From: Alphaproteobacteria bacterium | GTDB taxonomy: Bacteria; Pseudomonadota; Alphaproteobacteria; Sphingomonadales; Sphingomonadaceae | Direction of reading: 5' to 3' | Length of the DNA stretch: 34,026 bases | Assembly: GCA_003241875.1 (NCBI GenBank) | Contig: QBLU01000041.1 | Location: forward strand, 1-34,026 | Shown: piece after piece, positions 12,336-32,908 of the stretch | How positions within the stretch are numbered: the first letter of the stretch is position 1 | Layout: each line of letters opens with the position of its first letter | Notes under the pieces: model-generated | Database searches by the model: none | What the model saw: only the letters and a program-made list of their open reading frames with translations | Told to the model about the DNA's origin: nothing | Program-made: the position numbers and the translations under genes

Positions 12336-12340
12336 ACACG

Positions 12341-15775: not shown

Positions 15776-16558
15776 TCAGTCGGAGGCCAATCCCGGCATG
15801 CCGACAGCCATTTCGGCCGACACTGCTGCCGCTTCCCCCGCAACCATGGCGATGGCATCCTCCAGCCCGGCTTGGGCACCGTCGCGCAGGATGAACGGTA
15901 CGGTGAGCGCCGCAACCGCCCAGCCCGTTTCGCCGATGATCGGCGCGCTGATGTCGGTTACCCCCCTCACTGTGCGGCTGGGGCCATGCTCATGGCCTTG
16001 CGTGACCACCCGCTCGATACGCGCGCCGAAATCGGCGGCGTCGAAATCCGGATGCGCATCCGCCAGCTTGCTGATCAAGCGTTGTCGATCGGCCGAGCTG
16101 GCAAAGGCCGCGAGCACCCGCCCCGAGGTGGAATGATCGACGCGGCGGCGATAGCCTAAGCGAACGGCAAAGCCGAGTTCGCCGGGCGCTTCCACCCGGG
16201 CGATCACCACGATCTGCGTGTCGGACAGCACGGCAAGGTGACAGGACTGGTCGAGCACATGCGCCACCGCCGAGATATGCGGCATCGCCGTCTGGATCAG
16301 ATTGCGGGTCGGCGGGGCTTTCATTGCCATTTCAAACAGGCGATTGCCGATCAGAAAGCCGTCGCTGGCCTCATCGCGCATGATATAGCGGCGGCGTTCC
16401 AGCGCGACCAGCATCCGAAAGATTTCGCCTTTTGAGCGGCTTAGCCGCTCAGCGATCTGGCCCATGGTGAGCGGTCGGCTGCTTTCTGCCAGCAGCTCCA
16501 ATATGTCCAACCCCTTGTCGAGGGCCGGCGCCGAATATTTTGCACTTGTCTCGGCCAT
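15776..16558 (-). CDS. IclR-family transcriptional regulator
   Basis: 260 residues. An N-terminal winged helix-turn-helix (about 10-70: LDKGLDILELL, MGQIAERLSRSKGEIFRMLVALE) is followed by the IclR effector domain (about 80-255), with the conserved region DHSTSGRVLAAF. IclR proteins often bind a small pathway acid and control nearby catabolic genes. It lies between the alcohol dehydrogenase (55-base gap) and permease genes on the same strand, and probably controls the fucose genes. The effector may be a keto-deoxy acid, lactate or fuconate; this cannot be told from sequence. Confidence 0.9.
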   Translation of the reverse strand: MAETSAKYSAPALDKGLDILELLAESSRPLTMGQIAERLSRSKGEIFRMLVALERRRYIMRDEASDGFLIGNRLFEMAMKAPPTRNLIQTAMPHISAVAHVLDQSCHLAVLSDTQIVVIARVEAPGELGFAVRLGYRRRVDHSTSGRVLAAFASSADRQRLISKLADAHPDFDAADFGARIERVVTQGHEHGPSRTVRGVTDISAPIIGETGWAVAALTVPFILRDGAQAGLEDAIAMVAGEAAAVSAEMAVGMPGLASD

Positions 16559-18649: not shown

Positions 18650-18679
18650 CGAGTCGCACTCCCCAACGCCGTCCATATT

Positions 18680-18839: not shown

Positions 18840-18893
18840 ATGCCGTCAGCAGCCTCTCGTCGCACCCGGGCCGGCGGCCGCCAGTGGCTATGA
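18840..18893 (+). CDS. 17-codon leader frame coupled to the oxidoreductase gene
   Basis: The frame MPSAASRRTRAGGRQWL has the best ribosome site of the area (AGGGAG, 9 bases before its ATG). Its TGA overlaps the ATG of the next gene as ATGA. It may be a translated leader that couples entry into the operon. Alternatively it is the original N-terminus of the oxidoreductase, displaced by a short duplication: CAGTGG at 18882 and CAATGG at 18902 sit in a 20-base imperfect tandem repeat, and 20 bases is not a multiple of three. I cannot decide between these. Confidence 0.4.
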   Translation: MPSAASRRTRAGGRQWL

Positions 18894-19915
18894 GCGGCCA
18901 GCAATGGATCCTAGCGCAGCGTCCCCAGGGCCGGCTTCGCCCCGACATTTTCCGATTACAACCCCAGCCCGCCGACGAAGCCTCGCTGGCGCCGGGCGAG
19001 GTCGATGTGGCGCTGCGCCTGTTCTTGTGCGCGCCGACCATGCGCAACTGGATGGACCCGCCCGGCAACCATCTTTACCCCTCCGTGCCGATCGATGAGG
19101 CCATGCTGTCACCGGCGGGCGGACGCATCACGGCTTCCGCAGATCCCGACCGGCCGGTCGGCGCCGATGTGACCTGTTTTGGCCGCTGGCAGAGCCACAT
19201 CCGCGCGGCTGGCTGTGACACCGCGCTGGTGCCACCCACGCGTAGCCTCGTTGATGCCATGGGCCGGTTCGGTATCAACCCGCTTACTGCCTGGTTCGGC
19301 ATCAAGCGCATCGGGCAACTCCAGGCCGGTGAAACCCTGCTGGTCTCGGGCGCTGCCGGGTCGGTCGGCAGCATTGCCGTGCAGCTCGGCCGGCTGGCAG
19401 GCGCCCGAGTCGTCGGCATCGCCGGCGGGCCGGACAAATGCCGCTGGCTTACCGAAGTCATCGGCACCGATGCCGCGATCGATTACCGCAGCGAAAACCT
19501 GCCTGCAGCGATCGCCATCGCCTGCCCGAACGGCGTGGATGTGTTCTTCGACAATGTCGGCGGCAACGCGCTCGATGCGGCGGTCGATGCAATGAACCGC
19601 TTGGGCCGCATCGCGCTGTGCGGGCAGATCTCGGGCTACGATGGCGCCGACATGCGCGGCCCGGCCAACATGATGCGCCTCATCTACGGCGGCATCACCA
19701 TGCGCGGCTTCCTCGTCGGCGATTTCGCTTCGGAATGGGACGCCGCCCGCGCCGATCTCAAGGCCGGCTATGACAGCGGCGCAATCGTCTATCGCGACGA
19801 TCTGCGCGAAGGCTTCGAACAGCTGCCGCAGCATTTCTGCGACCTGTTCGAAGGCCGCAACAATGGCACGCTGCTGGTAATGAGCGATCGGCAAGCGCGG
19901 GAGCCGGCGCGATGA
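18890..19915 (+). CDS. NADP-dependent MDR oxidoreductase, enone/prostaglandin-reductase type
   Basis: 341 residues. It is a zinc-free medium-chain reductase of the PTGR/CurA group, which reduces the C=C bond of alpha,beta-unsaturated ketones with NADPH. The N-terminus MSGQQWILAQRPQG is typical. The cofactor loop is SGAAGSVGS (153-161), and VFFDNVGGNALDA (218-230) is the group hallmark. The ATG at 18890 is chosen over the GTG at 18884 because of the family N-terminus and the ATGA overlap with the leader frame. First full gene of the right-hand operon; its stop overlaps the next start (ATGA). A ketone-reducing role fits a pathway that handles a ketone aglycone. Confidence 0.87.
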   Translation: MSGQQWILAQRPQGRLRPDIFRLQPQPADEASLAPGEVDVALRLFLCAPTMRNWMDPPGNHLYPSVPIDEAMLSPAGGRITASADPDRPVGADVTCFGRWQSHIRAAGCDTALVPPTRSLVDAMGRFGINPLTAWFGIKRIGQLQAGETLLVSGAAGSVGSIAVQLGRLAGARVVGIAGGPDKCRWLTEVIGTDAAIDYRSENLPAAIAIACPNGVDVFFDNVGGNALDAAVDAMNRLGRIALCGQISGYDGADMRGPANMMRLIYGGITMRGFLVGDFASEWDAARADLKAGYDSGAIVYRDDLREGFEQLPQHFCDLFEGRNNGTLLVMSDRQAREPAR

Positions 19916-20634
19916 TCGTGCTGCCCACCGATAATCACCTGTGGGGCGGCGAGCCTAACTCGCCGCTGGTCGCCGCCATCCACCTGTCCGTCCGCGATCT
20001 CGTCCGCCGCCGATTGGTGCAAAGCGGCCTGGACTGGAATGCCTTCGTCAGTGGCCCGATTGACGATCTCATCGGCCAGGACGATTTCGCCGCCATCGAT
20101 GCGGCGGTCCTCGCCACCGGCCACCGCTACGCCTTTTCCGCTACGATTTCAGCGACCGAGCGTCCCGAAGCCTATCAGGGGCTGGCCACGCTCGATGGGG
20201 GCTTTGATCACCCCGACGCCCCCTCTGCCCCGCCTGATGCACAGGGCCGGGCGCTGTGTGGCACCGGCGACAATGTCGTGCAGGGCAGCGATGTGGAAGG
20301 CGTCGCCCGCTTCGTGCGCTCGGCCGGGCAGGTGATCGCATTGATGGAACAGGGCATCCCGCAAGGCAGCATCGCCATTATCGACGACAGCGGCGGCACG
20401 CTCACCGCGCCGATCCTCAATCGCTTCGCCGGCCTCGTCTGCGCCGGCGGCACCGTGCGCTCGCACCTGGGCATATTGGCGCGCGAATATGGCATTCCCT
20501 GCCTCATGAACGTACGGCTCGCCGGCATTCAGGATGGCGACCGCGTCCGGCTCGAAACCGGCGCGCCGGCGCGTACCGCCGAATCCTATCTATCGGGCAC
20601 CGAAATGCCCGCGCGCATCTGGAAACTGGCATGA
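19912..20634 (+). CDS. Stand-alone phosphohistidine swivel-domain protein
   Basis: 240 residues. The C-terminal half (about 145-215) is the PEP-utilising-enzyme mobile domain. Its motif GGTVRSHLGILAREYGIPC holds His185 where PEP synthase and pyruvate phosphate dikinase carry the phosphorylated histidine (usually TSHAAVVAR). The N-terminal 130 residues are not recognised. No ATP-grasp or barrel domain is present, so it must work with partners, presumably the dikinase-like protein at 24189 and the unknown protein that follows. Phenylphosphate synthase is a known multi-subunit precedent for splitting such domains. It overlaps both neighbours by ATGA. Confidence 0.75.
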   Translation: MIVLPTDNHLWGGEPNSPLVAAIHLSVRDLVRRRLVQSGLDWNAFVSGPIDDLIGQDDFAAIDAAVLATGHRYAFSATISATERPEAYQGLATLDGGFDHPDAPSAPPDAQGRALCGTGDNVVQGSDVEGVARFVRSAGQVIALMEQGIPQGSIAIIDDSGGTLTAPILNRFAGLVCAGGTVRSHLGILAREYGIPCLMNVRLAGIQDGDRVRLETGAPARTAESYLSGTEMPARIWKLA

Positions 20635-22112
20635 CCGGCCAACGTCCGGCTCCTGGCCCCGGCCCCGCCCCCAGCTACGCGCAGCTGCTCGAAACCAACC
20701 AGCTGATCCAGGCCTGCGGAGACATGACCTATTGGCTGTGCCTCACCCGCACCGTGCAGGGATCGAAGCTGTTCCCCGTCTCCGCCTATATCCTCTTGTC
20801 CTACCTCAACGCCTTCTACCGCTATCCCACTCTCATCCGGAAGGTGGAGGCGGTGATGCCTGCCGAAGCCATCGCCGATCGCGCCCGGCAGATGGGGGTA
20901 AAGGCCCAGAACAGCTCGATCGGCTGGGCCTTGCCCTGCTTCTACCTGCTGGGCCGTGAATATCTGATCAACCTCGGCTTCCTGCGCCCGCAGGACGCCA
21001 TTGAGGACGTGGTCACGGTCATGGACTTCTGGAAGCGCTTCCAGCTCGCCTGGCACCGCAACGACGGCCATCTCACCAACGCCGACAACAACCAGCGCGC
21101 CCAGATCCTGTCGCATGCCGATGTGACGCGCTTTGCCGGCGAGCTGCACAAGGTCGTGCCGGGCGACGCGCTGTCGGTGGCGGCCCAGCGCTTCCTCGCC
21201 ACCGTCTCGCAATATGGCTTCCTCGTCAGCGCTGAAAGCCGCATCAGCCTCACCAATTCCGGCCCCTATCGCCTCGATGCCGATCGCCAGCTGTTGATGC
21301 GCGATTTCATGGATCTCGGCGAAACCTCGCTGCCTTGGCTCGACGATATTGCCGCCGACATGCCGTTCAACAACCTGACCGTGGCGATGGAGGCGACCGG
21401 CTGCAATTTCCACCTCGTCGACGATTGGGGCAGCTTCGAAGCCACGCCGGAATTCACCACGGATCGGCTCACCGGCATAGGTATCTATGCCTCCGACACC
21501 TTGAGCGAAGGCCATGTGCCGGTGGCGATGGACAGTCCCGAAGCCCTGGCGGCCATGCTGCACGACCTGTCCGACCGCGCCAAGGTCGCGACCGACAGGC
21601 TGTGGATGCGCATGGCGGGGTGGAGCCGCGACCAGCTGATCGACGCCGGCGCCATCAGCTATTTCGCCATTTGCAAGGAGATCGCCCATATCGCCGGCGT
21701 CTTTGATCCCGCCGACTGGCTGGAGATCGATCCCCGCGCCGAGCGGTTCCGGCCGTTACTGTCGGATGAATATGCTGACAATGCATTGGGCGAGCTCGTC
21801 GGCGGCATATCCTTGCCCAGCCAGCAGACGGCGCCGCACTTCATGATGAAATGGTCCGATCAGCCGACGCGCGTGCTCACCCCGCTGCCGCTGTCGGTGC
21901 TCAACGGCGCGCCGTTTATGGGCCGGGTAGCGCCGACCCAGCCAGGCGCGTCGCATCTGCCGCCGAAGAACGACCGCTATCGCACCACCCGCGGCGTGCT
22001 GGGCCTCGCCGAATACAACGCTGCCGCGCGCAGCTTCGTGCCGGCGCGCTGCCAGCCCGGCCCGAACTTCACATGCGATACCACGCTTGCCTGGCCGGGC
22101 AGCGTCGAATGA
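20631..22112 (+). CDS. 493-residue protein of unknown family
   Basis: I do not recognise this protein. There is no signal peptide. The first 18 residues are Pro/Gly-rich. From about 20 on it is mostly helical, with polar-aromatic stretches and a possible amphipathic segment near 45-65 (VSAYILLSYLNAFYRYP). Conserved-looking polar patches are DFWKRFQLAWHRNDGHLTNADNN (split around 130-150) and CNFHLVDDWGSFEATPEF (around 258-275). It sits between a phosphohistidine swivel protein and an acyl-CoA synthetase, sharing 4-base overlaps with both, so dosage is coupled. A substrate-binding or acceptor subunit for the split dikinase is my inference, since neither swivel protein here has an acceptor barrel. 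Confidence 0.8.
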   Translation: MTGQRPAPGPGPAPSYAQLLETNQLIQACGDMTYWLCLTRTVQGSKLFPVSAYILLSYLNAFYRYPTLIRKVEAVMPAEAIADRARQMGVKAQNSSIGWALPCFYLLGREYLINLGFLRPQDAIEDVVTVMDFWKRFQLAWHRNDGHLTNADNNQRAQILSHADVTRFAGELHKVVPGDALSVAAQRFLATVSQYGFLVSAESRISLTNSGPYRLDADRQLLMRDFMDLGETSLPWLDDIAADMPFNNLTVAMEATGCNFHLVDDWGSFEATPEFTTDRLTGIGIYASDTLSEGHVPVAMDSPEALAAMLHDLSDRAKVATDRLWMRMAGWSRDQLIDAGAISYFAICKEIAHIAGVFDPADWLEIDPRAERFRPLLSDEYADNALGELVGGISLPSQQTAPHFMMKWSDQPTRVLTPLPLSVLNGAPFMGRVAPTQPGASHLPPKNDRYRTTRGVLGLAEYNAAARSFVPARCQPGPNFTCDTTLAWPGSVE

Positions 22113-23581
22113 GCCAGATCGCCGGTCTCATCACCCGCGCCGCCCGCCAGTTCGGCAGCCGTCCCTGCCTGGTGGAAGGCGGCCGCCGCGTCTCCTTCGC
22201 CGAATTCGATGCCGCCACCAATCGCTTTGCCAACGCCATGCAGACTTTGGGCCTGGCGCATGGCGATCGCGTCGGCGTGCTGCTCCCCAACGGAATCGAT
22301 TGCCTCATCGCCTATTATGGACTCGCCAAGGCCGGATTGGTGCGCGTCAGCCTCAACAGCCGGGACACCTTGGCAGATCTGCGCTTCAAGCTGGCCGAAG
22401 TCGGCAGCGGCGCGGTGCTGACCGCCGATGTTACAGCCGATCTCGGCGTGCCGATCACGTTCGCGCCGGCGCAGCTGCAGGCCATCATCGCGGCCGCCAG
22501 CGATGCGCCCTGCGGGATCGATCGCGGCCTCGATGATTCCTATCGGCTGGGCTTCACCGGCGGCACCACCGGCCGGCCCAAGGCGGTGACCCTCACCGAA
22601 CGCGGCGAGCTCGCCGAGCTGTCGGCCTTCCTCACCGATCTCGTGCCCGATATCGGCCCGCACGATCGCTTCCTGCACGCAGCACCCATTGCCCATGCAT
22701 CGGGCGCCTTCTTCCTGCCGGCGCTGGTGCGGGGTGCCACCTCGCTGGTGATGGCCAGATATGATGCAGCCGAATTCGTCGCGCTTGCCGCCGCCAGCCG
22801 CGCCACCATGACCTTCCTGGTGCCGACCATGCTCGCGCTCCTGCTCGACGATCCGGCATTAGAAGGCGCCGATCTGGCGCTGCGCCGCATTGCCTATGGC
22901 GCCTCGCCGCTGGCCCCGGCGGTCTATGCCCGCGCCGAGGCCCGCTTCGGCCGGGTGTTCGCCCAAACCTACGGTCAGGCGGAATCGCCGATGGTGATAA
23001 CCTGCCTCAAACCCAACGAGCACGACCGCATCGGATCGTGCGGCCGGCCGTTCACCCTCGCCGAGGTCGCGGTGATGGACGATGCCGGCACCCTGCTGCC
23101 GCCCGGCAGTGTCGGCGAAATGGTGGTGCGCGGGCCGCAGCTCATGGCGCGCTACTGGAACCGGCCCGAAGCCACGGCCGAGGCCTTTCGCGGCGGCTGG
23201 CTGCACACCGGCGATATCGGCCGCATGGACGATGAAGGCTTCTTCTACCTGCTCGATCGCAAGGGGGACATGCTCATCTCCGGCGGCTACAATGTCTATC
23301 CGCGTGAGGTCGAAGATGCGCTGCTGGCCTTTCCTGGCGTTGCTGAGGCCGCGGTCGTCGGCCTCCCCGATGAAACCTGGGGCGATCGGGTCCACGCCGT
23401 GGTGAGCGGGCAAGGCATCGACCAGCTGGCGCTGCTCGCCCACACCCGTGCCGTGCTGGCGGGATACAAGGCGCCCAGGTCGGTCGATGTGTGGCCAGAT
23501 CTGCCCAAGAGCCCCGCCGGCAAGATCCTGCGCCGCGAAGTCAGGCGGCTGGTGGTCGAAGCCCGGGAAGCGGTGGCATGA
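22109..23581 (+). CDS. Acyl-CoA synthetase (AMP-forming, ANL superfamily)
   Basis: 490 residues. The ATP loop is FTGGTTGRPKAV; A5-type motif TYGQAESP; LHTGDIGRMDDEGFFYLLDRKGDMLISGGYNVYP is read as separate A7/A8 blocks (about 367-400); the catalytic lysine is in KSPAGKILRRE near the C-terminus. It activates a carboxylic acid through an acyl-adenylate and transfers it to CoA. In this operon the logical substrate is the beta-keto acid made by the biotin carboxylase, giving a beta-ketoacyl-CoA for the thiolase. Benzoate- or fatty-acid-like substrates cannot be excluded. ATGA overlaps on both sides. Confidence 0.92.
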   Translation: MSQIAGLITRAARQFGSRPCLVEGGRRVSFAEFDAATNRFANAMQTLGLAHGDRVGVLLPNGIDCLIAYYGLAKAGLVRVSLNSRDTLADLRFKLAEVGSGAVLTADVTADLGVPITFAPAQLQAIIAAASDAPCGIDRGLDDSYRLGFTGGTTGRPKAVTLTERGELAELSAFLTDLVPDIGPHDRFLHAAPIAHASGAFFLPALVRGATSLVMARYDAAEFVALAAASRATMTFLVPTMLALLLDDPALEGADLALRRIAYGASPLAPAVYARAEARFGRVFAQTYGQAESPMVITCLKPNEHDRIGSCGRPFTLAEVAVMDDAGTLLPPGSVGEMVVRGPQLMARYWNRPEATAEAFRGGWLHTGDIGRMDDEGFFYLLDRKGDMLISGGYNVYPREVEDALLAFPGVAEAAVVGLPDETWGDRVHAVVSGQGIDQLALLAHTRAVLAGYKAPRSVDVWPDLPKSPAGKILRREVRRLVVEAREAVA

Positions 23582-24192
23582 GAAACCCCGGACCTGTCTG
23601 GCACCTGGCGCTGCATGGCCTCGCCATCCTGCGCGCCGCAACCCCCGCCGCGGTGGCCCGCCGCATGGCACTGGCCCCGGCAGAGGTCGAGGCCATGATC
23701 GATCTCGCCGCCGCACATGGTCGGGTGGTGCGCACCGGCGATCGGCTGATGCTGGCGCCACTGGCAAGGCTGGCGCTGGCGGCGGACTATTCGCGCACCT
23801 GCGCGGCGCTACGGGCCGATCCGGCGTTCAACGATGCAGCGGCGCGGTTCGAGGTGGTGAACCTCGATCTCAAGGCGTTGATGACCGATTGGCAGACCCG
23901 CGTCGTCGGCGGCCTTACTCTGCCGAACGATCACAGCGACCAAGCCCATGACGAACGGCTGATCGATCGCGTCGGCCGCTTCCACGATCGCGTCACCCCG
24001 CTGCTCGATGCCTTGGTCGGGCTGGTGCCACGCCTCGCAGTTTATCGCGACGGACTGCTGGCGGCACTGGAGCGCGCCGAAGACGGTGACATCGCCTGGG
24101 TCTCCGACGTGGCGTGCGAAAGCTATCACACCTTGTGGTTCGATCTGCACGAGGAGCTTCTGCGGCTCTCGGGGACGGAGCGGATCGAATGA
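23578..24192 (+). CDS. 204-residue protein with winged-helix-like N-terminus, unknown
   Basis: I do not recognise the family. Residues about 10-60 read like a winged helix (helix-turn-helix TPAAVARRMALAPAEVEAMI, then a short hairpin VVRTGDRLML). The remainder is helical with many acidic and Arg residues and Trp/His patches (NLDLKALMTDWQTR, ESYHTLWFDLHEELL). Because it is locked between the acyl-CoA synthetase and the dikinase-like gene by ATGA overlaps at both ends, it is more likely a subunit or regulator of the dikinase than a free DNA-binding regulator. Phenylphosphate synthase has a small regulatory third subunit, which is a loose analogy only. Confidence 0.75.
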   Translation: MRNPGPVWHLALHGLAILRAATPAAVARRMALAPAEVEAMIDLAAAHGRVVRTGDRLMLAPLARLALAADYSRTCAALRADPAFNDAAARFEVVNLDLKALMTDWQTRVVGGLTLPNDHSDQAHDERLIDRVGRFHDRVTPLLDALVGLVPRLAVYRDGLLAALERAEDGDIAWVSDVACESYHTLWFDLHEELLRLSGTERIE

Positions 24193-25577
24193 TCCTGCCG
24201 CTCGCCAATGATCTGGAGGCTGGCCCCGATCGCATCGGCGGCAAGGCGGCATCCCTGCTCGCCATGGCGCGGCTCGGCCTGCCGGTGCCGCCAGCCTTCG
24301 TAGTGCCCACCGATGTCGCGCGCACCTGGGCCGCCACAGGGCGCTTGCCGGATGGCTTTGCAGGCCAGCTGATGGAGGGGGTCCGCGGCCTTGAAGCCGC
24401 CTCCGGCCGCGGTTTCGGCGCCGCGCATCGCCCGCTACTGCTGTCGGTGCGCTCGGGCGCATCCGTGTCGATGCCCGGCATGATGGAAACACTGCTGAAC
24501 CTCGGTCTCGTCGATCAATCCGCCACCGGGCTCGCTGCCGAAACCGGCAACACCGCCTTTGTCGATGCTTTGCGCACCGGCTTCGCCGCCCAATTCAACC
24601 AATGCGTGGGGCCGGTGCCCGACAATGCGGAAGCGCAGTTGCTGGCTGCGGTCGAGGCGGTGATGGCATCTTGGAACAGCCGCCGTGCCCGCCGCTATCG
24701 CGCCCATCACGGCATCGCCGATGATCTCGGCACCGCCGTGACCGTGCAGGCGATGGTCTTCGGCAATCTGTGCGAGCGGTCGGGCACGGGGGTGCTGTTC
24801 AGCCGCAACCCCATCGATGGCGATTCGGCGCCCTGGGGGGAATGGCTGCCCGGCGCACAGGGCGAAGCACTCGTCGCCGGCACTCACGATGGCCAGCCGA
24901 TCGATGCCCTTGCAGCGGCACTGCCTGAGGCGCACGCGCAGCTGCTCGCCGGCGCTCGCGCTCTCGAACAGGCCGGGCGCGATGCCCAAGATATCGAATT
25001 CACCATCGAATCGGGCCAGCTCTACTTCCTGCAAAGCCGCGCCGCCAAGCGCACGGCGCGTGCCGCCGTCGCCATCGCGGTCGCGCTCCACGATGAAGGC
25101 CTGTTGTCGCGCGCCGAAGCGGTGGCGCGGGTCAGCCCCGATCAGATCGCCGCGCTGCTGGCACCTGTGCTCGGCGATGCCGGCGCCGCCCCGGTGCTGG
25201 CCAGCGGCACACCGGCCTCGCCCGGCGCCGGCGCCGGCCTTGCGGTTGGAACCGCCGCCGAAGCCGAAGCCCGCAGCGCTGCGGGTGAACCCGTGGTGCT
25301 GGTGCGGCCCACCACCAGCCCCGATGATGTCGGCGGCATGCTGGTGGCGATGGCGGTGGTCACCGGCGCCGGCGGCGCGACCAGCCATGCGGCTGTCGTC
25401 GGCCGCGCGCTCGGAAAGCCAGTGGTCACCGGGTGCGGCGCCGATGTGCCGGCGCGGCTTGTCGGCCAGCCGGTCACCGTGTGCGGTGCCAGCGGGCGGG
25501 TGTTCGCCGGGCTGCTGCCACTGGTACCCCCGCCCGTCGAACCGGCACTCGCCCGCTGGCGCGCGCTGGCAGGGTGA
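24189..25577 (+). CDS. Pyruvate-phosphate-dikinase-like protein lacking the PEP/pyruvate barrel
   Basis: 462 residues, about half of a normal dikinase. The ATP-grasp part follows PPDK closely: GGKAASLLAMARLGLPVPPAF (16-36 region), SVRSGASVSMPGMMETLLNLG and SGTGVLFSRNP, then DIEFTIESGQLYFLQSR. The swivel domain (about 340-445) carries the phosphorylatable His400 in GGATSHAAVVGRALGK. The protein then ends: the C-terminal PEP/pyruvate barrel (about 340 residues) is absent. The next gene starts 7 bases later, so this is not a frameshift. It should move phosphate from ATP to His400 and on to a non-pyruvate acceptor. Partners are probably the proteins at 19912 and 20631. Confidence 0.88.
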   Translation: MILPLANDLEAGPDRIGGKAASLLAMARLGLPVPPAFVVPTDVARTWAATGRLPDGFAGQLMEGVRGLEAASGRGFGAAHRPLLLSVRSGASVSMPGMMETLLNLGLVDQSATGLAAETGNTAFVDALRTGFAAQFNQCVGPVPDNAEAQLLAAVEAVMASWNSRRARRYRAHHGIADDLGTAVTVQAMVFGNLCERSGTGVLFSRNPIDGDSAPWGEWLPGAQGEALVAGTHDGQPIDALAAALPEAHAQLLAGARALEQAGRDAQDIEFTIESGQLYFLQSRAAKRTARAAVAIAVALHDEGLLSRAEAVARVSPDQIAALLAPVLGDAGAAPVLASGTPASPGAGAGLAVGTAAEAEARSAAGEPVVLVRPTTSPDDVGGMLVAMAVVTGAGGATSHAAVVGRALGKPVVTGCGADVPARLVGQPVTVCGASGRVFAGLLPLVPPPVEPALARWRALAG

Positions 25578-25584
25578 AGCACCG

Positions 25585-26013
25585 ATGACGATCACCCGCA
25601 GCGATATCGACGCGATTCTCGCCGCTTTCGAGGCCAGCGACTGGCGCAGCATCGTGCTCAAGGCCGATGGCGTCGAAATAGCCTTGTCGAAGGACGGCGC
25701 TACAGCGCCGGCGGCTACGATCGCGGCAGCCGCGCCCGTCTCGGCGCCCGCGCCACTGACCCCGGCGGACGGCGTGGAGGTCCGTGCCCCTACGCTCGGC
25801 AGCTTCTACCGCGCGCCGAAGCCCGGTGCCGCACCCTTCACCGATACCGGCGTCCGCGTCGCCGACGGCGACGAGCTGTGCTTGATCGAGGTGATGAAGC
25901 TGTTCACCAGCGTTCGCGCCCCCTGCGCCGGCGTGGTCACCGCGATCATGGCGAGCGACGGCGATCTCGTCGAACACGGCCAGCCGCTGCTTCGAATCGC
26001 GCCCGATGCCTAG
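25585..26013 (+). CDS. Biotin carboxyl carrier protein
   Basis: 142 residues. A short N-terminal helix, an Ala/Pro linker (about 38-62) and a lipoyl/biotinyl domain with the biotin lysine Lys105 in IEVMKLFTSV. The usual motif is EAMKM; EVMKL is an accepted variation. It resembles AccB in layout, including the 'thumb' insertion TLGSFYRAPKPGA, but has its own carboxylase and carboxyltransferase alongside. It overlaps the biotin carboxylase gene by 8 bases. This is a dedicated carrier for the carboxylase encoded here rather than the housekeeping AccB. Confidence 0.92.
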   Translation: MTITRSDIDAILAAFEASDWRSIVLKADGVEIALSKDGATAPAATIAAAAPVSAPAPLTPADGVEVRAPTLGSFYRAPKPGAAPFTDTGVRVADGDELCLIEVMKLFTSVRAPCAGVVTAIMASDGDLVEHGQPLLRIAPDA

Positions 26014-27340
26014 GCTGTTCGTGGCCAATCGCGGCGAGATCGCGCTGCGCATCATTAACGCCGCGCATGCGCTGGGCATCGAAACCGTGGTTGGCGTCTC
26101 GGCGGCGGATCGGGGCAGCCTGTGGGCGTGCGCTGCGGGCCGTGCGCTGGTCCTCGGACCGGCGCCGGCGCGGCAATCCTATCTCGATGGCCGGCTGCTC
26201 CTCCACGCCGCGCGCGCCAGCGGCTGCACCGCACTCCACCCCGGCTACGGCTTCCTGTCCGAAAATGCCGGTTTCGCCGCCGCCGTCGCCGATGCCGGCA
26301 TCGCCTTCTGCGGGCCGACGGCCGAACAGATGCGCGCGGTGGGGGACAAGCTGGCGGCACGGGCCCTGGCACGCCGGCTCGGCGTCGAAACCGGCCAGGC
26401 CAGCGAAGCCGTGTCCGATGCCGAAGGGCCTGCCGCTGCCGCCGCTCTCGGTTATCCGGTGGTCACCAAGGCCTCGGCCGGCGGCGGCGGACGCGGCATG
26501 CGCGTCGTGCACGCGGCCGGCGATCTCGCCGCTGCCATGGTCGCGGCCCGCACCGAAGCGGAGGCCGCGTTCGGCGATGGCCGCCTTTATCTCGAACCGT
26601 TCGTCACCGCTGCCCGCCATGTGGAGGTGCAGGCCTTCGGGCTCGGCGATGGCCGGGTCATCACGCTCGGCACCCGCGATTGCTCGATCCAGCGCCGCTA
26701 CCAGAAGCTGGTGGAGGAAGCTCCCGCCGGCGCCGTGCCCGGAGCCGCACGCGCCGCCATGGAAGCCGATGCGAAGCGCCTTCTCGGCGACATCGCCTAT
26801 CGCGGCGCCGGCACGGTCGAATATCTCTGGGATGAAGCGCGCGGGCACTATCGCTTCCTCGAGGTTAACGCCCGCATCCAAGTCGAGCATCCGGTCACCG
26901 AAATGGTCTGGGGCGTCGATCTGGTGCAATGGCAGATCGCCCTCGCGCTCGGTCGCTTCGAACCCCCGGCCGGCATTGCGCCCCGCGGCCACGCCATCGA
27001 GGTCCGGATCCTCGCCGAAGACGATGCCTTCCGACCTGCCCCCGGCTGCATCACCTGCTGGGCGCCGCCGCCCGGGGTGCGGGTGGATAGCGGCTTCGAC
27101 AAGGGCTGCCTGGTGTCCCCCTTCTACGACAGCATGGTCGCAAAGCTGATCGTTGCCGGCCCGACCCGCGCCGCAGCGGTGGAGCGCCTGCAACAGGCCC
27201 TGGCAGACTTCCGGGTAGAGGGCATCGCCACCTCGATCCCGTTGCTGCGCCGCATCGCCGGCCACCCCGATTTCGCCGCCGACCATCTGTCCACGCGCTG
27301 GCTCGATACCGGGCCGCTGGCGGTGGGGCAGGCGGCATGA
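26006..27340 (+). CDS. Biotin carboxylase subunit
   Basis: 444 residues, a normal AccC-type length. N-terminal domain FVANRGEIALRII, then HPGYGFLSEN, the Gly-rich ATP lid KASAGGGGRGMR, the ATP/metal-binding LEVNARIQVEHPVTE, and the C-terminal lobe RGHAIEVRILAED. It carboxylates biotin on the carrier using ATP and bicarbonate. It is coupled to the carrier gene by an 8-base overlap and to the carboxyltransferase gene by ATGA, making a three-subunit biotin enzyme. Confidence 0.95.
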   Translation: MPRLFVANRGEIALRIINAAHALGIETVVGVSAADRGSLWACAAGRALVLGPAPARQSYLDGRLLLHAARASGCTALHPGYGFLSENAGFAAAVADAGIAFCGPTAEQMRAVGDKLAARALARRLGVETGQASEAVSDAEGPAAAAALGYPVVTKASAGGGGRGMRVVHAAGDLAAAMVAARTEAEAAFGDGRLYLEPFVTAARHVEVQAFGLGDGRVITLGTRDCSIQRRYQKLVEEAPAGAVPGAARAAMEADAKRLLGDIAYRGAGTVEYLWDEARGHYRFLEVNARIQVEHPVTEMVWGVDLVQWQIALALGRFEPPAGIAPRGHAIEVRILAEDDAFRPAPGCITCWAPPPGVRVDSGFDKGCLVSPFYDSMVAKLIVAGPTRAAAVERLQQALADFRVEGIATSIPLLRRIAGHPDFAADHLSTRWLDTGPLAVGQAA

Positions 27341-28788
27341 AGGTCGAATTTCTCGATCAGACGCTGCGCGACGGGCAGCAGTCGCTCTGGGGCATGCGCA
27401 TGCAGGCGCGCCACGCGCTGCCCGCCTGCGACGCCCTCGATCGCACCGGCTTTCGCGTCATCGATCTTACTGGGTCGCATCATTTCGAAGTCCTGGTCCG
27501 CCATTGCCGCGAAGATCCCTGGGCGATGCTGGATGCGCTTGCCGCCGCCATGCCGCACACGGTGCTGCGATCGGGCATGCGCGCCAATGCCGCGATCAGC
27601 TTCCGCACCACGCCCGATGCGCTGATGGACCTGTGGATGCGGCAACTGAACTGCCACGGCGCCCGCAGCTTCTGGATCTACGATGTCCTTTTCGACATTG
27701 CCCGCACCCGGCGGCTGGCGCGGGTGGCCAAGGAATTCGGCTCCGAAATCGCCGGCGCGATCATGTTCACCTTGTCGCCGGTGCACACCGATGAATATTA
27801 TGCCGGCAAGGCCGCCGCGCTCGCCGCCTTGCCCGAAGTCGATACGCTGCTGCTCTACGATACCGCGGGCGTGCTCGAAAAGGATCGGCTGGCCACGCTG
27901 CTCCCCGCCATCCTGGCACAGGCGCGCGGCAAGCCCATCGAATTCCACGCCAACAACCTGATGGGCCAATCGGCCAAGGCCTATTGCGACGCGCTCGCCC
28001 TCGGCGTGTCGATCCTCCACACGGCCAGCCGGCCGATGGCCAACGGGCCGTCGGTGCCGTCGACCGAATGCATTGCCGCCAATCTCGCCCATCTCGGCCA
28101 CAGCCATGATCTCGATCTCGCTTGGCTGCCGCCGGTGGCGGCGCATTTCGAAGCGATGGGCGCCAAATGCGGCTTCCGCGTCAATCAACACGCCGAATAT
28201 GATCTGTTTGGGATTGCCCACCAGATCCCCGGCGGCATGGTCGGCACATTGCGCGCCCAGTTGCAGCAGCATGGCATGGAAGATCGCCTCCACGAGGTGC
28301 TTGCAGAAGTCGCCACCGTGCGCCGTGAACTCGGCTGGCCCGGCATGGCGACCCCGTTCAGCCAGCTCGTCGGCATCCAGTCGGTCCTCAACATCGTCAC
28401 CGGCAAACGCTGGTCGGTAATCCCCGAGGAAGTCATCACCTATGCCGCCGGCCATTACGGCGAGCCGGTGGCGCCGATCGACCCCCAGGTGCTCGATCGC
28501 ATCATGGCCGATCCCAAGGCCGCCCATGTGCTGGCCACCCCGCCCGAACAGCCGACCCTCGCCGAGCTGCACCGCCGCCACGGCACCGATGACGATGACG
28601 AGCTGTTCTTGCGCGCTCTGGTGCCCCAGGCCGATATCGACCGGATGCGCGCCGCAGGGCCGCTGGTCAGATCATTGCCGCTGGCTTCCTCTGCCGAGGC
28701 CGATCAGGTGATTCGCCTGATGCGCACCCTCGGCAGCCGGCACTTTCGGCTGGCCAGCGAAACCCTTTCGGTGGAACTGGCACGATGA
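27337..28788 (+). CDS. Pyruvate-carboxylase-type carboxyltransferase with altered active site
   Basis: 483 residues, HMGL-like barrel plus the conserved PycB/OadA C-terminal domain (HQIPGGMVGTLRAQL, TPFSQLVGIQSVLN, AGHYGEP). LDQTLRDGQQSLWGMRM marks it as pyruvate carboxylase/oxaloacetate decarboxylase-like. Asp12 and Gln15 are kept. The lysine that is carbamylated and binds metal (KDMAG in pyruvate carboxylase) is Tyr174 here (LYDTAG), and the HxH pair appears as His204-Ala-Asn206 (EFHANN). The catalytic Thr region (MTSQPS) reads MANGPS. It therefore probably carboxylates something other than pyruvate, likely a ketone. Stop and start overlap on both sides. Confidence 0.88.
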   Translation: MKVEFLDQTLRDGQQSLWGMRMQARHALPACDALDRTGFRVIDLTGSHHFEVLVRHCREDPWAMLDALAAAMPHTVLRSGMRANAAISFRTTPDALMDLWMRQLNCHGARSFWIYDVLFDIARTRRLARVAKEFGSEIAGAIMFTLSPVHTDEYYAGKAAALAALPEVDTLLLYDTAGVLEKDRLATLLPAILAQARGKPIEFHANNLMGQSAKAYCDALALGVSILHTASRPMANGPSVPSTECIAANLAHLGHSHDLDLAWLPPVAAHFEAMGAKCGFRVNQHAEYDLFGIAHQIPGGMVGTLRAQLQQHGMEDRLHEVLAEVATVRRELGWPGMATPFSQLVGIQSVLNIVTGKRWSVIPEEVITYAAGHYGEPVAPIDPQVLDRIMADPKAAHVLATPPEQPTLAELHRRHGTDDDDELFLRALVPQADIDRMRAAGPLVRSLPLASSAEADQVIRLMRTLGSRHFRLASETLSVELAR

Positions 28789-29954
28789 GGCACGCGGTCA
28801 TCGTCGATGGCGTGCGCTCGCCGTTCGGCAAGGGCAGGGCCGGCGGCGCGCTCCATGGGCTGCACCCCGTCGATCTGCTGGCCCGGTGCCTCGAAGCGCT
28901 GGCGTCACGCACCGGCATCGATTCCGCGATCATCGAGGATGTCATCACCGGCTGCGTGATCCAGGCCGGCGAACAGGCCGGCAATATCGGGCGCCAGGCG
29001 GTGCTGGCCGCGGGCTGGCCCGAACACATCCCGGCGGTCAGCCTCGATCGCAAATGCGGCTCGGCGCAGCAGGCCATCGATTTCGCCGCCTGCGGGATCA
29101 TCGCCGGCGCCTATGATGTGGTGGTGGCGGCCGGGGTGGAGATGATGTCCACGGTGCCCGCCAAGGCCAACCGGCTGGGGCGCGACAACCTCGGGGTGGG
29201 CTTCGCCACGCGCTACCCCGAAGGCCTGGTGCATCAGGGCGTCTCGGCGGAACTGATCGCGGCACGAGGGGGCATCGGCCGCGCGCAAATGGACGAGTTC
29301 GCGCTGCGGTCGCACCAACTGGCGGCAGCCGGGCCGGCGCCCGGGCTGGTGCCGGTGCAGGTGGGCGACCGGCTGGTGACCCATGACGAAGGTGTGCGCG
29401 CCGATTCGACCCTGGAACGGCTCGCCGCGCTGCCGCCGGCCTTCCACACTCCGGCAATGGCCGATCGCTTCCCGCAAATCGACTGGCAGGTCACCGCCGG
29501 CAATTCCAGCCAGGTCAGCGATGGCGCCTTCGCCATGCTGCTGATGGAAGAAGCCCGCGCCCGCGCCCTCGGCCTTCGCCCGCGCGCCCGGGTCACGCAT
29601 TTCGCCGTCGCCGGCGACGATCCGCTGTACATGCTCACCGCAATCGTGCCGGCCACCGGCAAGCTGCTGGCGCGGACCGGGCTCGGCATCGCCGATATCG
29701 ATGTTTTCGAGGTCAACGAAGCCTTTGCCAGCGTCGTTCTCGATTGGCTGGCCGCCACCGGCGCCGATCCGGCGCGGGTCAACGTGCACGGCGGTGCCAT
29801 CGCCACCGGCCATCCCGTCGGCGCATCCGGCGGCCGGCTGTTTCTCAACTGCCTTGCCGCGCTGGAGGCAACCGGCGGCCGCCACGGCCTCGTTACGATG
29901 TGCGAATCGGGCGGCATGGCCAATGCCACGTTGATCACCCGCTGCGAGGATTGA
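28785..29954 (+). CDS. Thiolase (acetyl-CoA C-acyltransferase type)
   Basis: 389 residues, normal thiolase length. Nucleophile Cys91 ([10 protein letters not shown]), His343 (GHPVGASG), and base Cys373 ([10 protein letters not shown]), with NEAFA at 311-315 completing the set. It cleaves a beta-ketoacyl-CoA with CoA to acetyl-CoA plus a shorter acyl-CoA. No enoyl-CoA hydratase or hydroxyacyl-CoA dehydrogenase is encoded in the window, so the beta-keto group is better explained by carboxylation of a ketone than by beta-oxidation. ATGA overlap with the previous gene; 2-base gap to the next. Confidence 0.94.
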
Positions 29955-29956
29955 AC

Positions 29957-31263
<1,307 letters not shown>

Positions 31264-31267
<4 letters not shown>

Positions 31268-32697
31268 CACACTATACGCCCGATCCCGAGAGCCTCGCCG
31301 CCCATCCGGTGCCGGCATGGTGGCGCGATGCCAAGCTGGGGGTGATGATCACCTGGGGCCTCTATTCGGTCCCAGCCTTCGCGCCGCGCGGCACCGATGT
31401 CGTGCAACTGCTCGCCGATCGGCCCGACGATGCGCTCAAGCTCACGCCCTATGCCGAATGGTATGAGAACAGCCTCAAGTTCGCCGATGGCCACACGGCC
31501 GCCCAGCATCGCGATCGGTTCGGCGATACGCCCTACACCGCTTTCCGCACCGCGTTCGAAGCGGGGCTGGAGGCCTGGTCCGCCGAACCGTTGATGGACT
31601 TTGTCGCCGGCATCGGCGCGCGCTATGTCGTGCCGATCACCAAGCATCACGACAGCTACTGCCTGTGGCCAACGCGCTTTCCCAACCCGCTGCGGGGTGC
31701 CGATTGGCATGCGCCGCGCGATCTGGTTGCCGAAATGGCGGTGGCAGCGCGGGCGCGGGGCCTACGCTTCGGCGTCTATTACAGCGCTGGGCTGGATTGG
31801 ACCCTCAACCCCGAACCCATCGCCAATCTTGGCGAAATGCGCGCCGCGCTTCCCGCCGGGCCGGCGGCGCGCCAGATGATGCGCGATCATTATCGCGAAC
31901 TGATCGCCGCCACCGATCCCGACATCCTCTGGAACGATATTGGCTATCCGGATGCAGATGATCTCTGGGAACTGCTCGCCGAATATTACAATGCGCGCGA
32001 CGATCGCCTGATCAACGACCGCTTCCAGCTGCCGACGCGCGGCCATGCCGCCATGACCGATCCGGCCGCGCGCGCAGCCTTCAATCGCGGCGTCGCCGGT
32101 GCCTTGCGCACCCCCGGCTTCGCCTTCGCCCCCGACACGCCGCCGGTGTTCGATCACCGCACGCCCGAATATGCCACTAGCGGCGGCATCGGCGATATCG
32201 CCTGGGAAACCGTGCGCGGCGTCGGACACAGTTTCGGCTACAAGGCGAATGAAACCTCCGCCGATTATCTCACCGGCGACGCCCTCATCGCGATGTTCCT
32301 GCGCATCGTCGGCAATGGTGGCAACCTGCTCATCAACATCGGGCCGCGTGCCGATGGCAGCATTCCCGATGAACAGACGGGACCGCTGCGCCAGCTCGGC
32401 GATTTCCTCCAGCGTAACGGCGATGCCATCTATGGCAGCCGGCCGTGTCAGGGCCTGCAGCAGATCGAGTGCGACGGCACCAGCATGCTCCCAGTCAGCG
32501 TCGGCCAGCGTCGTCACGTCCTTGTAGTCGGGCCAATACCTCCCCAACTCCGCCTCGCCGGCTGGGGCGGCGTCGCCGGGCTGGCGGCGCTGCACGGCCC
32601 GCACCTGGCCTGCAGGCGGGATGGGAACGATCTCATCGTCACCGTCCCGCCGCTCGTGTCCGCCGCCGCCGCGAGCGTGCTGACGGTGGCGCCATGA
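31264..32697 (+). CDS. Second GH29 enzyme (alpha-L-fucosidase), cytoplasmic
   Basis: 477 residues. GH29 hallmarks: [17 protein letters not shown] (19-35), [13 protein letters not shown] (His128-His129) and [10 protein letters not shown], with Asp225 the expected nucleophile. [19 protein letters not shown] closes the catalytic barrel, and a small C-terminal beta domain follows. No signal peptide. The sequence blocks differ clearly from the GH29 gene at 7693 (WNDIG versus WFDG), so they belong to different subgroups and probably cut different linkages or aglycones. It is ATGA-coupled to the acyl-CoA dehydrogenase gene, so expression is tied to the ketone/CoA genes. Confidence 0.9.
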
Positions 32698-32900
32698 AAC
32701 AGGTGCTGCTGCTCGGTCCCGCCGACAATGTGGTGGTCGCCATCGCAGATCTCCGCGCCGGGCAGCAGCTCGACGATGCCGGGCTGTCGGTCCGCCTCCC
32801 CGAACCGGTGCCGCTGGGCCACAAGCTGGCACGCCTGCCCATCGCCGCCGGCACGCGCATCGTCAAAATCAGCTCGGCCGCGGCCCACGAAGCGCCCTAA
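32694..32900 (+). pseudogene. SAF-domain small subunit, UxaA/altronate-dehydratase-like, C-terminally altered
   Basis: 68 residues. The N-terminal part (LLLGPADNVVVAIADLRAGQ, then PLGHKLARLPIAAGTRIVKI) matches the small SAF subunit of UxaA-type dehydratases. Family members normally continue with a K-x-G-x-PIG-x-A block and end in a HVHVHN-like metal site. Here the frame instead reads SSAAAHEAP and stops. The break lies between about 32868 and 32909, next to a transposase scrap. I read this as a 3'-truncated gene whose large-subunit partner would have followed. A naturally short SAF protein is possible but less likely. Confidence 0.6.
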
Positions 32901-32908
32901 GTCCTCGA

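What the first reader, a model, noticed from the sequence alone, without database searches (positions are those of the whole stretch)
18890..32900. Thirteen-gene coupled operon resembling ketone phosphorylation-carboxylation pathways, fused to fucosidase genes
The sequence shows a run of genes with 1-8 base overlaps or tiny gaps: enone reductase, swivel protein, unknown 493-residue protein, acyl-CoA synthetase, unknown 204-residue protein, barrel-less dikinase, biotin carrier, biotin carboxylase, carboxyltransferase, thiolase, acyl-CoA dehydrogenase, GH29, SAF subunit. As I recall, acetovanillone catabolism in Sphingobium SYK-6 (acv) and Rhodococcus (hpe) uses a split dikinase to phosphorylate the substrate, a three-part biotin carboxylase to make an aroylacetate, then CoA activation and thiolysis. 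This operon has each of these roles, plus a GH29 enzyme inside it. No enoyl-CoA hydratase or hydroxyacyl-CoA dehydrogenase is present, which supports a carboxylation origin of the thiolase substrate. A pathway for a fucosylated ketone would be new to my knowledge.
Basis: partly seen in the sequence, partly recalled or inferred. Interest (0 to 1): 0.88.

Follow-up and report, generated by a model that had tools for sequence, protein, structure and literature searches.

The report
Fucose-linked ketone phosphorylation-carboxylation gene cluster
A bacterium carries a conserved block of genes that appears to strip the sugar fucose from an unknown, possibly carotenoid-derived compound and then break down the remaining ketone by adding phosphate and carbon dioxide, a route for which no description was found.

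Summary
In detail: thirteen genes at 18890-32900 with nine 4-base overlaps, one 8-base overlap and two gaps of 2 and 7 bases. The locus is larger: 27 genes, including TonB, carotenoid oxygenase, a second GH29 and oxidative L-fucose genes, are collinear in another genus (G589). The part within G015's contig is syntenic too. G022 has the fucose locus but none of the 11 genes CurA-ACAD, so these form a discrete cassette.

The Acv/Hpe reading is half right. The logic matches (kinase, biotin carboxylase, CoA ligase, thiolase), but the proteins belong to another, apparently uncharacterised lineage. Its core recurs in named Proteobacteria and Actinobacteria.

New clue: the "acyl-CoA dehydrogenase" is ACAD11/LvaC-type, with the phosphate-binding R..R..HCMR motif and catalytic Asp; no phosphatase homologue was found in the cassette loci. 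I propose phosphorylation, carboxylation, thiolysis, then phosphate elimination from a 4-phosphoacyl-CoA, starting from a gamma-hydroxy methyl ketone freed from an alpha-L-fucoside. Cyanobacterial myxol 2'-fucoside fits this chemistry. The substrate is inferred; no enzyme was assayed.

The parts
2522..3775 (-). FMN-dependent L-lactate dehydrogenase-like; flank of the fucose locus
   Evidence: PF01070 1e-122; kept next to TonB in G589 and G022
3890..6157 (+). TonB-dependent receptor
   Evidence: Pfam; 78% in G589, 81% in G022 at the same place
6297..7685 (+). carotenoid cleavage oxygenase (CCO)
   Evidence: NCBIfam NF052295 8'-apo-carotenoid 13,14-cleaving dioxygenase, 676.9 vs cut-off 675; lignostilbene models 212.9 vs 800 and 173.3 vs 650; conserved in G022 and G589
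7693..8994 (+). GH29 alpha-L-fucosidase a (start chosen 7 bases after the CCO stop)
   Evidence: PF01120 2e-80; start; no signal peptide seen by eye
8991..9833 (+). FAA-hydrolase family, 2,4-diketo-3-deoxy sugar acid hydrolase-like
   Evidence: Pfam; best NCBIfam is the L-rhamnonate-type hydrolase, 388.7 vs cut-off 500
9858..11192 (-). enolase-superfamily sugar acid dehydratase (L-fuconate dehydratase-like)
   Evidence: MR_MLE Pfam; role inferred
11343..12335 (+). aldo-keto reductase (probable fucose dehydrogenase)
   Evidence: Pfam; role inferred
12194..13174 (+). Amidohydro_2 (probable fuconolactonase)
   Evidence: Pfam; role inferred
13174..13497 (+). RhaM-family L-fucose/L-rhamnose mutarotase
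   Evidence: PF05336 3.5e-29
13508..14245 (+). SDR dehydrogenase (probable 2-keto-3-deoxyfuconate dehydrogenase)
   Evidence: Pfam; role inferred
14255..15661 (-). MFS_2 (glycoside/sugar) symporter
   Evidence: PF13347 1e-71
15776..16558 (-). IclR-type regulator
   Evidence: Pfam
16614..17648 (-). MDR alcohol dehydrogenase
   Evidence: Pfam
17660..18676 (-). aldo-keto reductase 2, divergent from the operon
   Evidence: Pfam
18890..19915 (+). CurA-like enone reductase; first gene of the cassette
   Evidence: ADH_N_2/ADH_zinc_N; NF058644 234.5 vs cut-off 440, so family level only
19912..20634 (+). swv: stand-alone phospho-histidine swivel, His185 in GGTVRSH
   Evidence: PF00391; AlphaFold model matches the rifampin phosphotransferase swivel at 1e-6; motif found in 72 of 96 related ORFs
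20631..22112 (+). u493: proposed substrate-binding subunit of the kinase
   Evidence: no Pfam, no PDB fold match at E<=0.001; directly after swv in the window and in many module loci, but four genes away in a second arrangement; relative L027:9472-11100 carries swivel plus u493-like part
22109..23581 (+). AMP-forming acyl-CoA (beta-ketoacyl) ligase
   Evidence: PF00501/PF13193
23578..24192 (+). u204: small partner of the dikinase
   Evidence: no significant Pfam match; found in 63 of 80 named module loci
24189..25577 (+). barrel-less PPDK-type dikinase, ATP-grasp plus swivel, His400 in GGATSH
   Evidence: NF004531 569.1 vs cut-off 456; PDB PPDK 1e-97
25585..26013 (+). biotin carboxyl carrier protein (EVMKL)
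   Evidence: PF00364; motif
26006..27340 (+). biotin carboxylase
   Evidence: Pfam
27337..28788 (+). pyruvate-carboxylase-type carboxyltransferase
   Evidence: PF02436; tree
28785..29954 (+). beta-ketothiolase
   Evidence: Pfam; TIGR01930 above cut-off
29957..31267 (+). ACAD11/LvaC-type acyl-CoA dehydrogenase, predicted 4-phosphoacyl-CoA eliminase
   Evidence: ACAD11 structures 4.6e-132 to 8.5e-134 and unnamed-function 4hr3 1.9e-135, next ACAD 4.1e-39; [12 protein letters not shown] and DGPDEV
31264..32697 (+). GH29 alpha-L-fucosidase b; conserved in G022 without the cassette
   Evidence: PF01120 1.5e-63
32694..32900 (+). truncated SAF small subunit of a GD_AH sugar-acid dehydratase; large subunit lost

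Best explanation
The locus degrades an alpha-L-fucoside whose aglycone is, or becomes, a gamma-hydroxy alpha,beta-unsaturated methyl ketone, probably from a fucosylated carotenoid. Proposed steps: (1) TonB uptake; the CCO cuts the polyene. (2) Two cytoplasmic GH29 enzymes release L-fucose, which the oxidative fucose genes turn into pyruvate and lactate. (3) The CurA-like enzyme reduces the enone. (4) The dikinase with u204 takes phosphate from ATP, a swivel histidine carries it, and u493 presents the substrate hydroxyl. (5) BCCP/BC/CT carboxylates the methyl ketone to a beta-keto acid. (6) The ligase makes the CoA ester. (7) The thiolase releases acetyl-CoA and leaves a 4-phosphoacyl-CoA. (8) The ACAD11/LvaC-type enzyme expels phosphate, giving a 2-enoyl-CoA for beta-oxidation. 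Shown: gene content, conservation, cassette behaviour and catalytic motifs. Inferred: every substrate, the order of steps 3-8, cellular location, and the role of u493. One substrate makes every step line up: cutting C5'-C6' of myxol 2'-alpha-L-fucoside would give CH3-CO-CH=CH-CH(O-Fuc)-C(OH)(CH3)2, whose fucosylated oxygen becomes C4 of the acyl-CoA.
For: Conserved full locus in G589, visible part in G015. G022 has 16 of 16 fucose-locus genes and 0 of 11 cassette genes, GH29b following AKR2 directly. Cassette and fucose genes diverge in step: 82.9 vs 80.8% to G015 (13 of 16 fucose genes), 79.3 vs 76.9% to G589. ACAD is ACAD11-type with the residues that PMC12440821 reports as binding the 4-phosphate by modelling and mutants (R626, H634, R637) and a catalytic Asp at the same distance, 116 residues, as D753. 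No homologue of the SurE, PTP, HAD or APH queries in the window, G015 or G589 loci. swv folds as an RPH/PPDK swivel. CCO matches the apocarotenoid 13,14-dioxygenase model. PMC5133782 passages: NACOX1 makes a methyl ketone, NosCCD cleaves myxol-2'-fucoside, CCD1 cleaves lycopene at C5-C6 to a C8 methyl ketone. PMC3131562 passages name myxol 2'-alpha-L-fucoside in cyanobacteria.
Against: No substrate is shown. The CCO score barely passes in the window (676.9 vs 675) and G589's falls below (668.2); in the PDB the CCO is almost as close to a lignostilbene dioxygenase (2e-51) as to a carotenoid 9,10-dioxygenase (6e-55). Known relatives cut at C13-C14, and NosCCD cut myxol fucoside at C9-C10 and C7'-C8', not C5'-C6'; a C18 ketone from 13',14' cutting would not place the oxygen at C4. 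G022 keeps the CCO and both GH29s without the cassette, so the aglycone can be handled otherwise or left. G060 has the fucose genes and GH29a with no CCO beside them. G015 has no close CCO (best 31%), though its contig ends inside GH29a. 44 of 83 module loci carry SurE or PTP phosphatases and 5 of the 13 loci with the ACAD11 motif also have one, so elimination is not the module's general rule. The own genome does hold one SurE outside the window. u493 has no fold match and is not always next to swv.
Confidence: 0.42

Rival explanations
1. An Acv/Hpe-like pathway for a fucosylated hydroxyaryl ketone: phenol phosphorylation, carboxylation of the acetyl group, CoA activation and thiolysis to an aroyl-CoA.
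For: Same order of activities as Hpe (PMC9618137). The CCO family includes stilbene cleavers, and the pBAR1 plasmid of Sphingomonas bisphenolicum carries an LSD-like oxygenase near an Acv-like carboxylase. The module occurs in Croceicoccus bisphenolivorans and Sphingobium estronivorans.
Against: Kinase not homologous beyond generic domains. Carboxyltransferase in another clade. CCO scores far higher on the carotenoid than on the LSD models. No phosphatase homologue. ACAD11-type enzyme and enone reductase have no place in an aroyl-CoA route.
Confidence: 0.15
2. A phenylbutanoid or curcuminoid-type fucoside: enone reductase first, then phosphorylation of the phenol, carboxylation of the butanone, thiolysis to a dihydrocinnamoyl-CoA and ordinary dehydrogenation.
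For: CurA-like first gene. An ACAD after a thiolase fits chain shortening of an alkyl ketone.
Against: The ACAD carries the phosphate-eliminating motif. No ring-degradation family among the window ORFs scanned. The CCO would be unexplained.
Confidence: 0.12
3. The aglycone is an apocarotenoid methyl ketone of the ring side (ionone or apo-13-carotenone type) and the kinase makes an enol phosphate of the ketone itself, PEP-style, which the carboxylase then uses.
For: PPDK-type dikinase, a family whose normal product is an enol phosphate; pyruvate-carboxylase-type CT; apocarotenoid CCO.
Against: The PEP/pyruvate barrel is absent. Hpe precedent keeps the phosphate on a hydroxyl through carboxylation (PMC9618137). 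The ACAD11 motif would be unexplained.
Confidence: 0.15
4. The cassette and the fucose locus share a promoter region but serve unrelated substrates.
For: The cassette can be absent while the fucose locus persists (G022). 79 of 80 named module loci show no GH29 or L-fucose set in the flanks held (up to 10 kb, many shorter).
Against: GH29b overlaps the last cassette gene by 4 bases. Linkage kept across two genera with equal divergence.
Confidence: 0.12

Closest known systems
Hpe/Acv hydroxyphenylethanone pathway (HpeHICBADEF, AcvABCDEF)
   Same: ATP dikinase, then three-part biotin carboxylase on a methyl ketone, then CoA ligation and release of acetyl-CoA; compact operon with 4-base overlaps (PMC9618137).
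   Different: Substrate subunit without detectable similarity and a PPDK-type donor; CT only 35-38% identical to the five Hpe/Acv-like ones on hand; thiolase instead of hydrolase; no HAD phosphatase homologue; ACAD11-type enzyme, enone reductase and fucosidase added.
ACAD10/ACAD11 and LvaA/LvaC 4-hydroxyacyl-CoA route
   Same: ACAD of the same subgroup with R-R-H-R-D phosphate-eliminating residues.
   Different: No homologue of the two APH-type kinase queries in the locus; a dikinase is proposed to supply the phosphate, and upstream of CoA ligation.
Barrel-less PPDK (NF004531, PRK05878) with its small neighbour
   Same: Dikinase passes the NF004531 cut-off; dik and u204 neighbours also on Rhodococcus, Diaphorobacter and M. 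avium plasmids.
   Different: Here tied to swv, u493 and a carboxylase.
Rifampin phosphotransferase (RPH)
   Same: swv matches its swivel domain best in the PDB.
   Different: u493 shows no PDB match at E<=0.001 by Foldseek and none to RPH by sequence profile.
Oxidative (non-phosphorylating) L-fucose pathway
   Same: Mutarotase, dehydrogenases, lactonase-, dehydratase- and diketo-acid-hydrolase-like genes and a lactate dehydrogenase present.
   Different: Flanked by a CCO and TonB receptor and joined to the ketone cassette.

Membership tests
Hpe/Acv pathway | HpeH-type kinase subunit (substrate domain plus C-terminal swivel) | tested here: not met
   u493 profile vs HpeH-like L162 protein: probability 0.2%; swv only 26% over 93 aa of the swivel. 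HpeH-like named by gene order and motif, not compared with GD02 or SYK-6 proteins
Hpe/Acv pathway | HpeI-type ATP-grasp subunit without swivel | tested here: not met
   dik is PPDK-type and has its own swivel; 32% over 65 aa to HpeI-like
Hpe/Acv pathway | carboxylase of the Hpe/Acv/Xcc clade | tested here: not met
   CT 35-38% to five rows labelled Hpe/Acv-like (one with Hpe order, two with HAD neighbours, two by similarity only); split from the window's group at 100/100, long-branch warning given
Hpe/Acv pathway | phosphatase after carboxylation | tested here: not met
   no homologue of one HAD, one SurE and one PTP query in the window, G015 or G589 loci at E 1e-3; one SurE lies elsewhere in the genome
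Hpe/Acv pathway | activity on hydroxyacetophenones | not testable with these tools
   needs enzyme assays
ACAD11/LvaC subgroup | closer to ACAD11 than to other ACADs | tested here: met
   ACAD11 entries 4.6e-132 to 8.5e-134 vs 4.1e-39 for the next ACAD outside the subgroup; LvaC itself not compared
ACAD11/LvaC subgroup | R626, H634, R637, D753 equivalents | tested here: met
   [12 protein letters not shown] then DGPDEV with the same 116-residue distance; residues from PMC12440821 passages; correspondence by motif and spacing
ACAD11/LvaC subgroup | phosphate elimination from 4-phosphoacyl-CoA | not testable with these tools
   needs assay
8'-apo-carotenoid 13,14-cleaving dioxygenase NF052295 | score over the curated cut-off | tested here: inconclusive
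   window 676.9 and G022 686.6 pass 675; G589 668.2 does not
lignostilbene dioxygenase | score over the curated cut-off | tested here: not met
   212.9 vs 800 and 173.3 vs 650; the LSD-like control from pBAR1 (a 450-residue piece) scored 517.4 and 506.4, higher but also below the cut-offs
barrel-less PPDK NF004531 | score over cut-off, no PEP barrel | tested here: met
   569.1 vs 456; only PPDK_N and PEP-utilizers domains found by Pfam
oxidative L-fucose pathway | full enzyme set | tested here: inconclusive
   fitting families present by Pfam; substrate specificity not shown

The most novel reading that the evidence does not exclude
A complete bacterial route for eating cyanobacterial carotenoid fucosides such as myxol 2'-fucoside. 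An oxygenase trims off a small fucosylated enone, fucosidases free the sugar, and a new four-part dikinase phosphorylates the very hydroxyl that carried the fucose. That phosphate survives carboxylation and thiolysis and is then the leaving group for an ACAD11-type enzyme, joining two phosphorylation-based strategies that I found together in no described pathway.
Probability: 0.22. Interest if true: 0.88.

Novelty: new variant of a known kind. Interest (0 to 1): 0.72.

Why it matters
In the papers read here, phosphorylation followed by biotin-dependent carboxylation of a ketone is described for phenolic ketones only. Here a second kinase-carboxylase lineage, with an unrelated substrate subunit, recurs with the same core genes in named genomes of Alpha-, Beta- and Gammaproteobacteria and Actinobacteria. 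One branch is welded to a fucoside locus. The ACAD11-type enzyme suggests what the phosphate is for: a stored leaving group. If right, this gives the 493-residue family a function, and it makes bacterial turnover of cyanobacterial carotenoid glycosides directly testable.

Tried and rejected
Rejected: membership in Acv/Hpe. LSD-type stilbene cleavage as the first choice. A one-strain accident. The SAF protein as a working subunit in this genome.

Led nowhere: fold search of u493 in the PDB (no match at E<=0.001); PDB profile searches of u493 and swv; paper searches for the module (one paper: the HpeHI study), for carotenoid plus fucosidase (0 papers), for isoprenoid methyl-ketone carboxylation (nothing on it in the 8 listed of 13), for Rhodococcus P23 with estradiol and plasmid (0 papers), for R. 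oxybenzonivorans (4 papers listed, none opened), for S. estronivorans (listing only), and for myxol plus fucosidase (none of the 10 rows listed of 252 held both words). The statement that no description was found rests on these searches of an open-licence library only.

Rows left out: A3 used 34 of the 80 named loci plus the window; L054 was dropped for a stop codon and the rest were not chosen. A4 used 36 of 61 candidate swv ORFs, and those 61 had been chosen for length and for holding RSH, so the invariant RSH in A4 is by construction; the unfiltered count is 72 of 96. The CT tree used 33 rows chosen from those on hand plus the window, after a 77-row run stopped at the display step. ORF component counts come from a mechanical ORF list on loci of unequal length, so they are lower bounds, and some of the 80 loci come from one genome (L061 and L090; L044 and L110). 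Only the first 50 fold matches are printed.

Full report
Observation. The 13-gene run is real. Its junctions are nine -4, one -8, +7 and +2. Left of the operon lie a lactate dehydrogenase, a TonB receptor, a carotenoid oxygenase (CCO), a GH29, and a set of genes that reads as the oxidative L-fucose pathway: mutarotase, aldo-keto reductase, amidohydrolase, enolase-superfamily dehydratase, SDR, FAA hydrolase. An MFS_2 symporter and an IclR regulator follow. The right end is damaged. Homology to G015 stops inside SAF near 32852, followed by a stretch that reads, from recall, like a Tn3 transposase piece and an IS1595-type transposase running off the contig. The GD_AH large subunit present after SAF in G015 and G022, and at the same place in G589 by the start of its translation, has no match in the own genome.

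Conservation. G015, in the same genus (its 32,043-base contig 75 matches in length and number the named record JAIXUQ010000030.1, a pond MAG, L042), has the cassette and the fucose genes as far as GH29a, where its contig ends. G589, in another genus, has all 27 compared genes collinear on one contig, with one extra OYE-like gene between SDR and MFS. G022, in the same genus, has 16 of 16 fucose-locus genes, including TonB, CCO and both GH29s, but 0 of 11 cassette genes on those contigs; AKR2 is followed directly by GH29b on one contig. u493 has no match anywhere in G022. Mean identities to the window are 82.9% (cassette) and 80.8% (13 of 16 fucose genes) for G015, and 79.3% and 76.9% for G589, so both parts diverge in step. 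The presence/absence pattern shows that CurA-ACAD is one unit. Loss in G022 or transfer are both possible; I did not test which. G060 has the fucose genes and GH29a (72%) with neither CCO nor cassette beside them. In the genus, 2 of 24 genomes have u493 and 3 of 24 have a CCO at 70% or more. GH29b at 77% or more was found in 3 of 397 family genomes (the own one, G022 and G589), among 46 with any match; G015 is not among the 46 rows and was evidently not in that draw.

A wider module. A genome-contig scan with a u493 alignment confirmed 90 relatives and kept 80 loci. Counts of 80 loci with a best match to each window gene: u493 80, ligase 72, swv 71, BCCP 66, BC 64, CT 63, dik 63, u204 63, window-type thiolase 24, ACAD 14 (weak ACAD matches included), GH29b 1 and the L-fucose set 1 (both the G015 record). 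Many loci are cut by contig ends, so these are lower bounds. The order swv-u493-ligase-u204-dik-BCCP-BC-CT recurs in Sphingobium estronivorans, Roseiarcus, Pseudooceanicola, a Rhodocyclaceae MAG, a Nevskia MAG, Rhodococcus and Pseudonocardia, among others. Many sphingomonads use u493-BCCP-BC-CT-ligase-swv-u204-dik instead. In a 398-genome draw of the phylum only the own genome matched u493, so the module is patchy. Biotin synthase-like genes adjoin it in L026, and in L043 with an ORF of the same cluster in L114.

The kinase. dik is a PPDK whose barrel is missing. swv is a free swivel: its motif stands in 72 of 96 related ORFs and its model matches the RPH swivel. u493 has no known domain and no fold match; the model is confident (pLDDT 87.6). 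Its place next to swv in the window-type arrangement, and a relative that carries swivel and u493-like parts in one protein (L027:9472-11100), suggest that it is the substrate subunit. Against that, in the second arrangement the two genes are four genes apart. Actinobacterial loci often carry two or three swv-u493 pairs beside one dik, which fits interchangeable substrate subunits sharing one ATP-using donor. This is inference.

Comparison with Hpe/Acv. PMC9618137 (abstract, Results part 1 of 3, Discussion read) and PMC12167813 (abstract, structural section, Discussion read) describe HpeHI, HpeCBA and HpeD. The Rhodococcus JS3073 plasmid stretch L162 has an Hpe-like order, with an HpeH-like swivel motif SDIGGIMCH. 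Against it the window proteins show only generic domain similarity. In the CT tree the window, G015 and G589 form a 100/100 group whose nearest relatives are S. estronivorans and Sphingosinicella (that join 93/91); five rows that I labelled Hpe/Acv-like (L162 by gene order, L032 and L163 by HAD neighbours, L161 and L034 by similarity only) are split from the rest at 100/100, and the program warns of long branches among them. GD02 and SYK-6 sequences were not on hand. So it works like Hpe but is not a member on these tests.

The phosphate. Hpe ends with a phosphatase. In the module at large, SurE or PTP genes lie in 44 of 83 loci (36 of 58 longer than 17 kb; family names). No homologue of the SurE, PTP, HAD and two APH queries lies in the window, G015 or G589 loci; elsewhere the own genome has one SurE and no PTP of that family. 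Instead the operon has an ACAD whose best named relatives are ACAD11. It carries R-x4-R-x2-HCMR and, 116 residues on, the Asp of a DGP stretch, equivalent by motif and spacing to mouse ACAD11 R626, R631, H634, R637 and D753. PMC12440821 reports from modelling and mutants that R626, H634 and R637 bind the 4-phosphate (passages). PMC11342911 (passages) reports phosphate elimination by LvaC and ACAD10/11. The motif occurs in 13 of 83 module loci, 5 of them with a phosphatase as well, so the two are not exclusive. A 4-phosphate after thiolysis implies a hydroxyl at the gamma position of the starting ketone.

The substrate. The CCO adjoins GH29a by 7 bases and keeps this place in G022 and G589. It matches the apocarotenoid 13,14-dioxygenase model narrowly; an LSD-like control scored high on the LSD models and low on this one, though below the LSD cut-offs. 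By PDB sequence search the two kinds are closer (6e-55 and 2e-51). PMC3131562 passages name myxol 2'-alpha-L-fucoside as a cyanobacterial carotenoid. PMC5133782 passages report NosCCD cleavage of myxol-2'-fucoside, a Novosphingobium enzyme making beta-apo-13-carotenone, and C5-C6 cleavage of lycopene to the methyl ketone MHO by plant CCD1. From the structure of myxol (recalled), C5'-C6' cutting gives an enone methyl ketone with fucose on the gamma oxygen, which accounts for the enone reductase, fucosidase, kinase, carboxylase, ligase, thiolase and ACAD11 in turn. The bacterial CCOs in that review cut elsewhere, so this stays a hypothesis. A BaiCD/OYE-like flavoenzyme lies near the locus in G022 and G589 and has close homologues elsewhere in the own genome (76%) and G015 (89%), which would suit polyene reduction.

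Verdict. A real, conserved, two-part catabolic locus; a new variant of ketone phosphorylation-carboxylation; mechanism plausible; substrate open.

Noticed in passing
window 32852-34026: SAF gene broken near 32852, followed by a Tn3-transposase-like remnant and an IS1595-type transposase that runs off the contig (family names from recall). The GD_AH large subunit has no match in the genome.
   Followed up: partly
L155 6380-6760: In G022 the fucose locus lacks the whole CurA-ACAD cassette, with GH29b directly downstream of AKR2.
   Followed up: yes
L091-L117 (Actinobacteria): Often two or three swv-u493 pairs beside a single dikinase, as if several substrate subunits share one phosphate donor.
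   Followed up: no
L027 9472-11100: One protein holding a swivel domain and a u493-like part, a natural fusion.
   Followed up: partly
L032 566-11351 and L163 4874-10356: Acv-like carboxylase plus HAD protein with a Tm-1-like ATP-binding protein where HpeHI would be expected; on bisphenol plasmid pBAR1 an LSD-like oxygenase lies upstream.
   Followed up: no
L033 12088-15458: R. pyridinivorans P23 has a second BCCP-BC-CT set, 45% identical in CT, with no dikinase among the annotated neighbours.
   Followed up: no
L153 14373-16436, L155 10337-12370, L171: BaiCD/OYE-like flavoenzyme near the locus in G589 and G022; close homologues elsewhere in the own genome and G015.
   Followed up: partly
L155 666-1730: Fatty-acid-desaturase-like gene next to the SDR in G022, without a match in the window, G015 or G589 loci.
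   Followed up: no
L125 (G000:C16:18999-20384): A second carotenoid oxygenase in the own genome, 38% identical to the window one; no NCBIfam match at 1e-40.
   Followed up: no
window 944-2308: 454-residue protein with a C-terminal PEP-CTERM signal and no other family.
   Followed up: no
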